From contig CALVAZ010000044.1 of the NCBI GenBank assembly GCA_944325675.1, forward strand, positions 1 through 34,481: DNA of 34,481 nucleotides. The letters are read 5' to 3'. Below are positions 5,092 to 33,941 of the stretch, piece by piece. Each line of letters begins with the position of its first letter. Within the stretch, counting starts at the first letter, position 1. Made by a program: the position numbers and the translations under genes. The notes beneath the pieces were generated by a model. The model had not been told where the DNA came from, did no database searches, and was given only the letters and a program-made list of their open reading frames with translations. This stretch comes from Candidatus Gastranaerophilales bacterium (GTDB lineage: Bacteria; Cyanobacteriota; Vampirovibrionia; Gastranaerophilales; Gastranaerophilaceae).

Positions 5092-6207
5092 ATGGCAATA
5101 CAATCGATATCAAGTGTTACAAATAAGGGTTATTCCAATATAAGTTTTGGGAAACGCTCAGAAAAAGCTGAAAAAAATCACAATATTACAAGTCCTGTGA
5201 AGGCAATTCCTTTAGCGGTATTAATCGCGATGAGTCCTTTAACGACCACAAAAGCCGCTGATATTATGCGAGATGAGAATAATGTTAATAAAGTTGAGCT
5301 TGCGGAAGCTCAGCAGAGTAGAGGCAGAGTTTTAATATACGGTGATGTTTTCAAAACTCAAAACGGTTCTAATGTCACGGTGATGGCGTTTAATACAAAG
5401 GGTGGTAAGGATAGCTATGATCAAATAGTATTAAAAGTAGGTGATTATACCTTTGAGGCAAAAGATCTCGTTGAAAGAGAAGTATATCTATATTCTGGTA
5501 ATGGTGGTAAAGAGGGACCTTTAATATTTAAAGAAGTGATCGGAGAAGTTGAACATAATGGCAAAAAAGAACGCTTCAGTTTCTTGGATCCTAATGTTGT
5601 AGGCTTTGTGGAAGCGATAGTGTCACAAAATACAAATCAAAGCAATATCAGAGGTGTTCGTAAAGCTCAGAATAATCTTGTTATTGCGGATGAAAAAGGG
5701 AATTTGCTTTTTGTTTCCAATGATTATTTGAACAAAGAATTTTTGCCGACTATGAAAAAAGCATTTGAAACAGCTTCTTCCGGTGATGAAATAATTAATC
5801 GTAAGTTAAAAGAGCAAATGAATGCTCAAGAACTTGGAAGTATGGATGTTGAAGGATTATTTGGGAACTATACACTTAAATTTTATGATGTAGATGGTAA
5901 TAGAGATAATTACGAACATATTTATGTCCAAAAAAGTGGGGAAAAAGAATTTATAGTTACTGGTATCAATAGTATTGACAGCAGACTTCACGGTGTTGAC
6001 GAAGTTATGTCTATGGGTCAAATTCATGCTATTTTATTACAACCAAATCTTATTGCGGCTGCTGCTCACGAAGTCCCCTATATTATGACCGATGATGCAC
6101 TTGCAAAGGCAATTGTTGCTGCAATGTCTTCACCCGAATACAATAAAGATAAGTCATCTATATCAGTTACTGAATATGTGTCCAATTTGGCACTAGGTGA
6201 TGATTAA
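5092..6207 (+). CDS. unrecognised protein with N-terminal ISFG motif and hydrophobic segment
   Basis: I do not recognise this 371-residue protein. The N-terminus is Ser/Asn-rich and carries NISFGKR at residues 17-23, a motif shared with two other unknown proteins in the window. A hydrophobic stretch follows at about 42-58 (AIPLAVLIAMSPL) and ends in TKAAD. That resembles a signal peptide or membrane anchor, although the preceding 40 residues are longer than a usual n-region. The rest is a soluble, mixed-charge sequence with many beta-like stretches (VLIYGDVF, VTVMAFNT, YDQIVLKVGDYTFEA). The segments at about 75-130 and 255-300 look loosely alike (…DSYDQIVLKVG…, …DNYEHIYVQKSG…), suggesting a duplicated domain. 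CAGGAG sits 6 nt before the ATG. It has its own strong promoter and terminator. Confidence 0.85.
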   Translation: MAIQSISSVTNKGYSNISFGKRSEKAEKNHNITSPVKAIPLAVLIAMSPLTTTKAADIMRDENNVNKVELAEAQQSRGRVLIYGDVFKTQNGSNVTVMAFNTKGGKDSYDQIVLKVGDYTFEAKDLVEREVYLYSGNGGKEGPLIFKEVIGEVEHNGKKERFSFLDPNVVGFVEAIVSQNTNQSNIRGVRKAQNNLVIADEKGNLLFVSNDYLNKEFLPTMKKAFETASSGDEIINRKLKEQMNAQELGSMDVEGLFGNYTLKFYDVDGNRDNYEHIYVQKSGEKEFIVTGINSIDSRLHGVDEVMSMGQIHAILLQPNLIAAAAHEVPYIMTDDALAKAIVAAMSSPEYNKDKSSISVTEYVSNLALGDD

Positions 6208-6308: not shown

Positions 6309-8798
6309 ATGACTTTAGGTGACAGTACAATTAAACATAATATAAATGTGTCTCAATCACAGACATCACAAAGTGGTGTAGATTCATCAAGGGCTGTCAC
6401 AACAGGTTCAAAATTTGTTGTACCTGTCACTATTGATGAAGAGTTGCTAAAGTTAGTAGGATTAACACCTGAGGAATATTTACAGCTTACAGATAAACAA
6501 AAAGCAGAAGTAAATGACCAACTTAATCAAATCAAGAATTCTTCGGATACGACTAATTTTGGCATAAAAGGATTATATGTAGAATCAAACTCAAATATAG
6601 TGGATGGTAAATTGCCGTCTATTGAAAATCCCATTGAAACAAAGGAAGAAATAAAGGAACAAAATGAACTAATAAAGTCTGAAATTACAAAAAATCGCGA
6701 AATAACTGAATCCGACTGGAAAAAAATGTCTTCAGAAGAAAGACGTGCTTATATTAAAACAATGTTGGACGATGTTTTAAAGGATGTCCCAGAAGAAAAG
6801 TACGGCGAATTAATCAGAGAGTTTGCAGACAAGAGAATAAAGGAAAGTCGTGGTTTTACAGACGAACGCTGGGAAAAGATGTCTGCCGATCGTAAGGAGC
6901 GCCTCAGAGATCGTTTCTTTTCAGATTTTAATTTGGCGGTTGAAAACGGTTTCACAAAAGAAGATTTTGAGACTTTGTCCTATGAAGATAGGCTTCATTT
7001 GGAAATAGAACTAAGAGATAAACAAATAAATACATTGACCGAAGATTTAGAGAATATGGCAATAAACTACGCGGCAGGTAGTACAGAATCTCCGGAAAAA
7101 TTGCGTCAGCGTAATGAAGAGTTAATAACTAAATTAAAAGCTCAACAAGAAAAAACAATCCAAAGTGATAATTTGCTTGAAGCTATTAAGTCTATGGGTG
7201 CTAATCGTAATAATAATAACCCACGAGCTGGAGAATCTCAATTAAGTGATTTAGTTCAGCTAAAAAAAGATTCAAGTGATTTTAATAGCAAAAATGCAGA
7301 TTCAGTAAGTTTGCCAAGAGCATCCCATCTTGATAGAGGACAGAGAAGGGCTGCTTTTATGGAAGAGTTCAAAACTCTCTATGGCCATAATGTTGACTTT
7401 AATAATGTTGAAGATAGAAATAAATTCAACAAAATGATGACGGATAAATCTAAAGAATTACCTGTCGAGAAACAAGCTCAGGCAAAGTTTAATTATTTTA
7501 CAGATACAATTTTAGAATTATCTTCTCAAACACAATCAACTGATATAAATGTAAAAAAACGTGCAGAAGAACAATTAAATACCTTATTAGAAACGGCTTC
7601 AGAACTTGGTATTACAACAGAAGTAATTAATCAAATTGCAGCAGGCCAATTCCCACAAGAGGGAATTGGGGATTTAAATGATAGATTGGGTGATTTAGCA
7701 GCTGTAATTAATAAAATTAATGCTCCAAATCCGCGACAAAAAACATTTGTGAAAGATATATCTACTATCCAATCGCATGTAATTGCTAATGGTGTAAAAC
7801 CAAGTGAAGCATTTGATAATTTGTATATAAATGAGCAATATTCAGATGTAGTTGGTGAGGGAATTCGAGAAAATGAAGGTTCAAAAGCCGTTATCGGATA
7901 TTTAACTAGTATGACCCCGCGTTTGCATAAAGACAAACAACTTTCTGAGTATAATAAAAATATGGCATATACTTATACCCTAAAAAGAGATGCTGATATA
8001 ATAGATTCTCAAATACAATTATATGATACAATTGGTGATTTGGCTGTTGAAAATCAAAGCCACGCATATGAGACAATTATGTCATCAAACTTTGATGAAG
8101 TTCAAGAATATGCAGCGAACAATATCTATAAATTGGATGAAAGTGTAAGAGATTGGGCTGCGGATTATACAAGATCTTTGGGTAAAGAAAACCTTAATAA
8201 TGCAATCAGAATGGAGGCACCTCCAGCTACTGATTCACATAAGAGCGGTGCGTCAAATGCTAATTCTGATTTCGGATACAATGAATCAGTCAATAATTCT
8301 ACAAACTTTGTGACAAATACGATTAGTAATAATGCAAACATTTCGAATGAGATAAGTAAAAATATAGAAAATTTATCCTCCAATACAAAAAATGTTTATA
8401 ATGAAATAAATTTAAAAGAGGGGAATCTTTCCAGAGACGAAGCAATAAAATATTTCAAAAGCTTATCAAGGAAAGAACAGAGTGATCTTTTAAATGCATT
8501 ACCTGCACAATTGTTCAACAAACTTCCTGTAACAATATGCGAGAATTTCCCTGAATACGTTTCAACTTTCGTTGAAAAAGGTCGTGGTATTGAAATAATT
8601 ACAACTTGCAGCTCAGTTATAGCCAATTCTGCAATTAAAAGTATGAAAGTCGGAAGTTCTAAAACCAAAAAAGAATTAAATGAATTTATTGCCCAACACC
8701 CTGAAATGTTTAACAAAATCTCTCAAGAGGCTGCACAAAAGGCCCTCGGTGGTTCGGATGATAATAAAATAGAAAAACCATTGAAGTTCAAAGCTTGA
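6309..8798 (+). CDS. large unrecognised helical protein with short TPEE/SxEER-type repeats
   Basis: The 829-residue product has no signal peptide or membrane helix and is strongly charged, rich in Asn, Glu, Lys and Ser. At least four copies of a roughly 21-residue helix-turn-helix-like unit can be seen. They start at residues 52 (LTPEEYLQLTDKQKAEVNDQ), 132 (ITESDWKKMSSEERRAYIK), 183 (FTDERWEKMSADRKERLRD) and 215 (FTKEDFETLSYEDRLHLE). A fifth, weaker copy begins near 707 (LSRDEAIKYFKSLSRKEQ). Residues 235-285 are likely coiled coil. Residues 290-350 and 645-700 look disordered and Asn/Ser-rich. No catalytic motif is apparent, so a structural or scaffold role is conceivable. The ATG has only a weak GAGAG ahead of it. 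ispH starts 24 nt after its stop. Confidence 0.85.
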   Translation: MTLGDSTIKHNINVSQSQTSQSGVDSSRAVTTGSKFVVPVTIDEELLKLVGLTPEEYLQLTDKQKAEVNDQLNQIKNSSDTTNFGIKGLYVESNSNIVDGKLPSIENPIETKEEIKEQNELIKSEITKNREITESDWKKMSSEERRAYIKTMLDDVLKDVPEEKYGELIREFADKRIKESRGFTDERWEKMSADRKERLRDRFFSDFNLAVENGFTKEDFETLSYEDRLHLEIELRDKQINTLTEDLENMAINYAAGSTESPEKLRQRNEELITKLKAQQEKTIQSDNLLEAIKSMGANRNNNNPRAGESQLSDLVQLKKDSSDFNSKNADSVSLPRASHLDRGQRRAAFMEEFKTLYGHNVDFNNVEDRNKFNKMMTDKSKELPVEKQAQAKFNYFTDTILELSSQTQSTDINVKKRAEEQLNTLLETASELGITTEVINQIAAGQFPQEGIGDLNDRLGDLAAVINKINAPNPRQKTFVKDISTIQSHVIANGVKPSEAFDNLYINEQYSDVVGEGIRENEGSKAVIGYLTSMTPRLHKDKQLSEYNKNMAYTYTLKRDADIIDSQIQLYDTIGDLAVENQSHAYETIMSSNFDEVQEYAANNIYKLDESVRDWAADYTRSLGKENLNNAIRMEAPPATDSHKSGASNANSDFGYNESVNNSTNFVTNTISNNANISNEISKNIENLSSNTKNVYNEINLKEGNLSRDEAIKYFKSLSRKEQSDLLNALPAQLFNKLPVTICENFPEYVSTFVEKGRGIEIITTCSSVIANSAIKSMKVGSSKTKKELNEFIAQHPEMFNKISQEAAQKALGGSDDNKIEKPLKFKA

Positions 8799-23512: not shown

Positions 23513-23797
23513 ATGAGAGTAACACCTATACAAAATATAACGACAAAACATATAACATTCGGAGAAAGAAGATCATATGACGGTAATCCAAGAATTGCTT
23601 TGTTATCTTTACAAAATTCCGATATATTAAACTTTGAAAAGAATTTGAAATTGACTCAAGAGGCCGATGCTGTTCAATCTAATCCATTGAAAGCTTTAGG
23701 TCGTAAATTTACCAAGGCTTATAATATACTTTTTTCCCAAGAAGGTGAAACTAATAAAGCAGAAACTTCATACATACACTTGCCTTATATGGCTTAA
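23513..23797 (+). CDS. small unrecognised protein with N-terminal ITFG motif
   Basis: The 94-residue basic protein is not recognised. Its N-terminus reads MRVTPIQNITTKHITFGERRSYDG, with HITFGERR at about 13-20, matching the motif of the 5092 and 33615 products. The remainder is soluble, with two probable helices (LLSLQNSDILNFEKNLKLTQ and ALGRKFTKAYNILFS), and ends in YIHLPYMA. Expression signals are unusually good for this window: a near-consensus promoter, a leader hairpin, and a doubled GGAGGGAGGT about 7 nt before the ATG. A strong terminator follows. It is probably abundant; function unknown. Confidence 0.85.
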   Translation: MRVTPIQNITTKHITFGERRSYDGNPRIALLSLQNSDILNFEKNLKLTQEADAVQSNPLKALGRKFTKAYNILFSQEGETNKAETSYIHLPYMA

Positions 23798-28824: not shown

Positions 28825-28827
28825 AAA

Positions 28828-28900
28828 TGGAGCGTAGGGGATTCGAACCCCTGACCCCGACACTGCCAGTGTCGTGCGCTACCAACTGCGCTAACGCCCC
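28828..28900 (-). tRNA. tRNA-Ala (anticodon GGC)
   Basis: A 73-nt cloverleaf. The acceptor stem carries the G3:U70 pair that identifies alanine tRNAs. The anticodon loop CTGGCAG reads GGC, with normal U33. The T-loop is TTCGAAT. CCA is not encoded. It lies 6 nt downstream of tRNA-Val. Confidence 0.95.
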
Positions 28901-28906
28901 AAAAAA

Positions 28907-28982
28907 TGGTGGGCGATACAAGGCTCGAACTTGTGACCCCTTGAATGTCGTTCAAGTGCGCTACCAACTGCGCCAATCGCCC
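28907..28982 (-). tRNA. tRNA-Val (anticodon GAC) with C33
   Basis: A 76-nt cloverleaf with encoded CCA (28909-28907). All stems pair: acceptor GGGCGAT/ATCGCCC, D stem GCGC/GCGC, anticodon stem CTTGA/TCAAG. The anticodon loop reads ACGACAT, giving GAC with A37 but C where the nearly universal U33 belongs. A73 and A35 match valine identity. It forms a pair with tRNA-Ala. Confidence 0.88.
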
Positions 28983-33614: not shown

Positions 33615-33941
33615 TTATGCGGGCTTATTTGTTATTAGTTCTGTTTTTGTTTTGTTTATGTATTGTTGCAGGATATTAGGATCTATATGTTCCAACAGCT
33701 TACCTATTATGTAGGGGTTGTCACTAGGTGTTATTATTCTGATACCTTTGTCGGCAAGTTTTTCATTTGATTTTTGTACCGAAAATTTATCCTTTATTTC
33801 CACATTGAAAAAATCTGAACCAAGTTTTGGATAATTTTTTGCAGTATAATCTTTTATAACTTTATACTTTTTATTTATTTCGGAATCGGTTGTTCCATAT
33901 GGAAATCTTATATCGTATATACCAGAAAAACTAACACGCAT
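33615..33941 (-). CDS. unrecognised small protein inserted between rplF and rplR
   Basis: I do not recognise this 108-residue protein. It starts MRVSFSGIYDIRFPYGTTDS, with VSFSG at residues 3-7 resembling the ISFG/ITFG motif of two other unknowns in the window. The remainder is basic and mixed alpha/beta (VIKDYTAKNYPKLGSDFF, DKGIRIITPSDNPYIIGKLLEHI, LQQYINKTKTELITNKPA). It begins 9 nt after the rplF stop with AGGAT about 7 nt ahead, and ends 51 nt before rplR. It is thus co-oriented and likely co-transcribed with ribosomal proteins. This position is normally empty in bacteria. Confidence 0.85.
   Translation of the reverse strand: MRVSFSGIYDIRFPYGTTDSEINKKYKVIKDYTAKNYPKLGSDFFNVEIKDKFSVQKSNEKLADKGIRIITPSDNPYIIGKLLEHIDPNILQQYINKTKTELITNKPA

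What the first reader, a model, noticed from the sequence alone, without database searches (positions are those of the whole stretch)
5092..5170. A short N-terminal [IV][ST]F[GS] motif shared by three unrelated unknown proteins
NISFGKR (residues 17-23 of the 5092 product), HITFGER (13-19 of the 23513 product) and RVSFSGI (2-8 of the 33615 product) sit near the N-termini of proteins that otherwise look unrelated. Each follows a Ser/Thr/Asn-rich or very short lead. This may be a sorting, assembly or processing tag of a system particular to this lineage.
Basis: partly seen in the sequence, partly recalled or inferred. Interest (0 to 1): 0.7.

Follow-up and report, generated by a model that had tools for sequence, protein, structure and literature searches.

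The report
Shared N-terminal tag in Gastranaerophilales proteins
Gut bacteria of the uncultured order Gastranaerophilales attach the same short, apparently unstructured tag to the front of many unrelated proteins, including spare copies of ordinary enzymes, which suggests an undescribed system that recognises these proteins inside the cell.

Summary
The lineage is Candidatus Gastranaerophilales. Orthologues keep the motif while leader length and flanks drift: Phe is one of only three invariant columns in the 23513 family (26 sequences), nearly invariant in the 5092 family, and Phe and Gly are invariant in the 33615 family. A matrix trained on these three families finds an N-terminal excess in another taxonomic family of the order (17 versus 4.3 expected, p=2e-6), but no clear excess in four samples from outside the order. 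In 61 hand-curated carriers the bodies fall into 48 clusters. Some are N-terminally extended paralogues of enzymes (PRPP synthetase, 4-alpha-glucanotransferase, RelA/SpoT). Some carry a Sec or lipoprotein signal after the tag; others look soluble. Best reading: a short linear docking or sorting tag read in the cytoplasm, before or independently of export, by an unidentified partner. A flagellin-less type III export apparatus, found throughout the order, is one candidate reader. No description of such a tag was found in the papers searched.

The parts
5092..6207 (+). Tagged protein, family A (371 aa): leader, tag, charged linker, signal-peptide-like segment, unknown body
   Evidence: ORF; orthologues in 13 other genomes of the genus over most or all of the length, and N-terminal-module matches in further genera
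5137..5157 (+). Tag core NISFGKR, residues 16-22 of the 5092 product
   Evidence: Phe19 nearly invariant in 20 relatives; synonymous codons vary
5200..5256 (+). Signal-peptide-like segment KAIPLAVLIAMSPLTTTKA, residues 37-55
   Evidence: A38, P40, A46, S48, P49 invariant in 20 relatives; leader module found in 88 of 192 genomes
23513..23797 (+). Tagged protein, family B (94 aa), no signal peptide
   Evidence: Relatives in 26 of 59 genomes searched, 11 genera; alignment of 26
23549..23569 (+). Tag core HITFGER, residues 13-19 of the 23513 product
   Evidence: Phe16 one of three invariant columns, Gly17 in at least 90%
33615..33941 (-). Tagged protein, family C (108 aa), between rplF and rplR
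   Evidence: ORF; relatives in the same place in the ribosomal operon
33918..33938 (-). Tag core RVSFSGI, residues 2-8 of the 33615 product
   Evidence: Met1, Phe5 and Gly7 invariant in six relatives; residues 1-5 have model confidence below 50

Best explanation
The motif is the core of an N-terminal short linear tag used across Gastranaerophilales. Shown: a short polar leader (M-x-[IV]-x-[P/S/A]-[IV/L]-[N/S] plus a variable N/S/T/Q-rich stretch) followed by hydrophobic/P - [S/T/N] - Phe - (x) - Gly, often then Lys/Arg, precedes many unrelated bodies and is kept by selection on the protein. Inferred: the tag is intrinsically disordered and is bound in the cytoplasm, probably on the nascent or newly made chain, by a lineage-specific partner. 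Phe would be the anchor residue and the small residue after it would set the local shape. On exported carriers the tag lies in the n-region of a Sec or lipoprotein signal, so it would have to be read before translocation; on soluble carriers it stays as a flexible tail ahead of the domain. The partner would gather tagged proteins at one place or machine (sorting, assembly or handover). The partner and the destination are not identified.
For: Motif kept in orthologues with drifting leader length and flanks; synonymous codon variation at every motif position, so selection is on the protein. Leader and tag co-occur: 16 of 41 leader-positive versus 76 of 1537 leader-negative proteins, p=1.5e-10, with no association for F-to-Y, L or I controls. 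A matrix trained on the three window families finds 17 versus 4.3 expected N-terminal matches in another family of the order (p=2e-6) and no clear excess in four samples from outside it. 48 body clusters among 61 curated carriers. Tag present as an N-terminal extension on PRPP synthetase, GH77, RelA/SpoT, NTP transferase, AAA and M41 domains, with a canonical untagged PRPP synthetase in the same genome. Tag before lipobox or A-x-A signals in some carriers and on proteins without any in others. Motif in a low-confidence, probably disordered segment of the family C model.
Against: No partner was found. The carrier list was curated by eye, and the regex that generated candidates is loose. Model confidence is low for family B. 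Gene calls are from my own simple caller on sampled stretches. Slight excesses in some control patterns mean part of the raw excess is compositional.
Confidence: 0.55

Rival explanations
1. The leader is a type III export signal: tagged proteins are substrates of a flagellum-derived, flagellin-less type III apparatus found in every Gastranaerophilales genome searched, and SF(x)G is part of the signal.
For: FHIPEP (FlhA/SctV family) in 146 of 146 genomes of the order; flagellin absent from the window's genus and many others (34 of 98 genomes have it); FlhA-like, FliH, FliF and FliE genes side by side in a flagellin-less genome; the leader half of the tag is shared by flagellin, a flagellin-like FlgL candidate and other genes of a flagellar cluster in G046; tagged enzyme paralogues beside an untagged copy would fit exported versions.
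Against: Those flagellar proteins lack SF(x)G; some carriers have lipobox or Sec-like signals; outgroup genomes G206, G211 and G219 have the apparatus but no clear tag excess; genome G073 lacks a strong FHIPEP match yet has a leader-module hit, although a gap in assembly could explain that. The leader resemblance was noticed after the fact.
Confidence: 0.18
2. The tag is a protease recognition or degradation signal: it is cut or recognised to control the lifetime or maturation of its carriers.
For: Exposed, probably disordered motif with frequent basic residues after it; would work for soluble and exported carriers alike.
Against: No candidate protease is linked to the tag; residues after Gly vary widely between families, which fits docking better than a cleavage site.
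Confidence: 0.07
3. It is only an extended n-region of Sec signal peptides, slowing or guiding export as the ESPR of autotransporters is thought to do.
For: Family A and several other families have a signal-peptide-like or lipoprotein signal 15-40 residues after the tag; 23 of 61 curated carriers have a hydrophobic segment after residue 15, against 264 of 1578 proteins overall.
Against: 38 of 61 carriers have none, including enzymes that need cytoplasmic substrates such as PRPP synthetase.
Confidence: 0.07
4. Coincidence: short common residues near N-termini, with the excess made by composition and shared ancestry of a few families.
For: The strict motif is only about three times enriched and some control patterns show slight excess.
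Against: Orthologue conservation, leader co-occurrence and out-of-sample enrichment.
Confidence: 0.05

Closest known systems
Extended signal peptide region (ESPR) of autotransporters and YSIRK signal motif of Gram-positive surface proteins
   Same: A conserved short motif in a long n-region ahead of a hydrophobic signal, shared by otherwise unrelated proteins (from general knowledge)
   Different: Here most curated carriers have no signal after the motif, and sequence models do not match
Type III (flagellar/injectisome) N-terminal export signals
   Same: N-terminal, polar, S/T/N/I-rich, variable, apparently disordered, on unrelated proteins
   Different: Has a fixed Phe and a following Gly, which the flagellar substrates of the same lineage lack; some carriers have Sec or lipoprotein signals
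Encapsulation peptides of bacterial microcompartments and encapsulins
   Same: A short terminal extension on enzymes that have untagged relatives
   Different: Those are amphipathic helices or C-terminal motifs (general knowledge); no shell gene was sought here
Sortase, exosortase and other dedicated C-terminal sorting signals (LPXTG, PEP-CTERM)
   Same: A lineage-wide tag on many unrelated proteins read by one dedicated machine
   Different: N-terminal, and not tied to exported proteins; no processing enzyme known

Membership tests
ESPR / YSIRK extended signal peptides | Match to the family model | tested here: not met
   Pfam and NCBIfam scans of the 5092 product list no such model up to E=1
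ESPR / YSIRK extended signal peptides | Motif always followed by a Sec signal peptide | tested here: not met
   38 of 61 curated carriers have no hydrophobic segment after it
Type III export substrates | An export apparatus in the same genome | tested here: met
   FHIPEP in 146 of 146 genomes of the order, including this one
Type III export substrates | Shared signal with known substrates of that apparatus | tested here: inconclusive
   Leader half resembles flagellar proteins of G046; SF(x)G is absent from them
Type III export substrates | Actual export | not testable with these tools
   Needs an experiment
Lineage-specific docking motif (short linear motif) | Conserved short motif with variable spacing on unrelated proteins | tested here: met
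Lineage-specific docking motif (short linear motif) | Located in a disordered segment | tested here: inconclusive
   Residues 1-5 of the family C model below 50 pLDDT; family B model too poor to judge
Lineage-specific docking motif (short linear motif) | A binding partner | not tested
   No candidate partner was tested; no complex prediction was available

The most novel reading that the evidence does not exclude
Gastranaerophilales have a dedicated N-terminal tag-and-receptor system that gathers dozens of unrelated proteins, including tagged duplicates of core enzymes, at one cellular site or machine, unlike any described bacterial sorting system.
Probability: 0.3. Interest if true: 0.85.

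Novelty: new variant of a known kind. Interest (0 to 1): 0.62.

Why it matters
Much of the coding capacity of these gut bacteria has no assigned function. It also gives annotators a usable N-terminal mark for the order and a clear single-residue (Phe) mutation to test.

Tried and rejected
DNA-level element: rejected, because synonymous codons vary at every motif position. Phage origin: PHROGs gave nothing except one weak match of unknown function. Known fold for family C: no PDB match at E below 0.001; the family B profile gave no convincing PDB sequence match. Sec-only reading: rejected as a general account because of carriers without any signal. Unbiased three-residue words were dominated by ordinary signal peptides and prepilin leaders. 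The first search of named genomes with the full family B alignment failed for lack of a conserved stretch and was repeated with closer sequences. The 250-protein loose regex list was too noisy and was replaced by hand curation. Literature searches found no report of such a tag.

Full report
WHAT WAS CLAIMED AND WHAT IS THERE. All three peptides are there; NISFGKR is at residues 16-22, one less than stated. The genes have plausible ribosome-binding sites. The window is contig C44 of a 1.47 Mb, 120-contig genome, 86% complete. Relatives of the 23513 gene in named records are Candidatus Gastranaerophilales, so the lineage is this gut order of non-photosynthetic relatives of Cyanobacteria.

IS IT MORE THAN CHANCE? 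The strict pattern is about three times enriched in the first 30 residues over internal blocks of the same proteins (11 versus 3.7 in 1578 genes of five genomes; p=0.0016); the wider [STNP]F(x)G gives 74 versus 44.4, while replacing F by Y, L or I or reversing the pattern gives no excess. The gene calls come from my own simple caller, and the genus samples partly overlap in gene content. Stronger tests follow. First, orthologues: in the 23513 family Phe16 is one of three invariant columns among 26 sequences from 11 genera, with varying Met-to-Phe spacing. In the 5092 family Phe19 is nearly invariant in 20 sequences whose overall identity to the window protein falls to about 22%. In the 33615 family Met1, Phe5 and Gly7 are invariant in six sequences. 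Codons at the motif vary synonymously. Second, a polar leader pattern (M-x-[IV]-[NSTQ]-x-[IV]-[NSGTQ]) predicts the tag: 16 of 41 versus 76 of 1537, p=1.5e-10, with no association for F-to-Y, L or I versions; weaker associations with SF(x)N, SF(x)K and SF(x)S probably reflect N/S/K-rich leaders. Third, a matrix trained only on orthologues of the three window proteins was applied to G046, a genome of another taxonomic family of the order: 17 N-terminal matches at 8 bits or more versus 4.3 expected (p=2e-6); samples of four genomes outside the order (G206, G211, G219, G058) show no clear excess, though they are small and hold two tag-like N-termini.

THE TAG. Carriers read like MAIxPISxVxxxNNxINFEGKKK, MNINRVNQAPSFGNFF, MTVSPVNFAGN, MAGISFGSLK or ...LSKDTVSFGLSKK. 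The common core is hydrophobic or Pro - [S/T/N] - Phe - optional residue - Gly (sometimes Ala). I curated 61 carriers by eye; their bodies form 48 clusters at BLAST E of 1e-3. The family A leader module alone is found in 88 of 192 genomes and 17 genera of the order, on open frames from about 100 to 839 residues.

WHAT IT SITS ON. Most carriers have no known domain. Exceptions matter: N-terminal extensions with the tag precede 4-alpha-glucanotransferase (GH77), AAA plus peptidase M41, nucleotidyltransferase and RelA/SpoT domains, and PRPP synthetase and AAA domains. G046 and G041 each have a canonical untagged PRPP synthetase and a second copy with a 40-odd-residue extension ending in DTVSFG-[IL]-SKK; the tagged copy of G046 keeps the DLHSPQIQGFF and DDMIDTAG stretches and is 45% identical to the canonical copy, so it looks like a working enzyme with a tag. 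Other carriers have, after the tag, a signal-peptide-like segment (KAVPLAVLIAMSPLTTTNA) or a lipobox (LTAC in L128:12472-13659, VTSC in L225:977-2071). 23 of 61 have a hydrophobic segment and 38 do not, by a simple hydropathy cut-off.

STRUCTURE. The model of the 33615 product (pTM 0.73, six sequences) is ordered except residues 1-5, which hold most of the motif; it has no convincing PDB match. The 23513 model is poor (pTM 0.24) with no secondary structure before residue 26. Conserved but apparently unstructured residues at a terminus are what a docking motif looks like; this is inference.

MECHANISM. Because the same tag heads soluble enzymes and proteins with Sec or lipoprotein signals, it is best explained as something read in the cytoplasm, before or regardless of export. 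I propose a docking or sorting tag with Phe as anchor, read by an unidentified partner. An alternative reader is a type III apparatus: FHIPEP is in 146 of 146 genomes of the order, flagellin is missing from the window's genus and many others (34 of 98 genomes have it), and a FlhA-like gene lies beside FliH, FliF and FliE genes in a flagellin-less genome. Earlier papers describe incomplete flagellar gene sets in these bacteria as losses of a functional flagellum (PMC4040986; PMC3787301). Some flagellar proteins share the leader half of the tag, but they lack SF(x)G and some carriers have Sec signals, so I rank this second.

COMPARISON. It works somewhat like ESPR or YSIRK extensions but is not one: no model match and not tied to Sec. 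It resembles encapsulation peptides in tagging spare enzymes but differs in sequence; no shell protein was sought. Literature searches in the held library found no description of such a tag; subscription papers are mostly not covered.

VERDICT. Its function is inferred, not shown.

Noticed in passing
Order-wide; L145:4385-10262 (G010), L154 and L155 (G021): A FlhA-like gate of about 700 aa, distinct from the flagellar FlhA class, occurs in essentially every Gastranaerophilales genome, including those without flagellin, beside FliH, FliF and FliE genes and several conserved unknown genes. It may be a non-flagellar type III apparatus rather than a decaying flagellum.
   Followed up: partly
33615-33941: The family C gene sits between rplF and rplR of the ribosomal operon in all seven genomes that hold it with certainty.
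   Followed up: partly
6309-8798: The 829-aa neighbour of the 5092 gene has a polar leader and a TNFG at residues 82-85, kept in the G012 relative (KTNFG); too far from the N-terminus to be counted as a carrier.
   Followed up: no
L241:1360-2391 and L242:958-1989: Second PRPP synthetase with a tagged N-terminal extension in two genomes (G041, G046) that also hold the canonical enzyme.
   Followed up: partly
L131:11855-13720 and L134:6810-8753: Two related tagged proteins in G046; the first matches 4-alpha-glucanotransferase, the second clusters with it.
   Followed up: no
28827-28982: Two adjacent tRNA genes (Ala, Val) on the minus strand overlap a probably spurious 87-aa plus-strand ORF.
   Followed up: no
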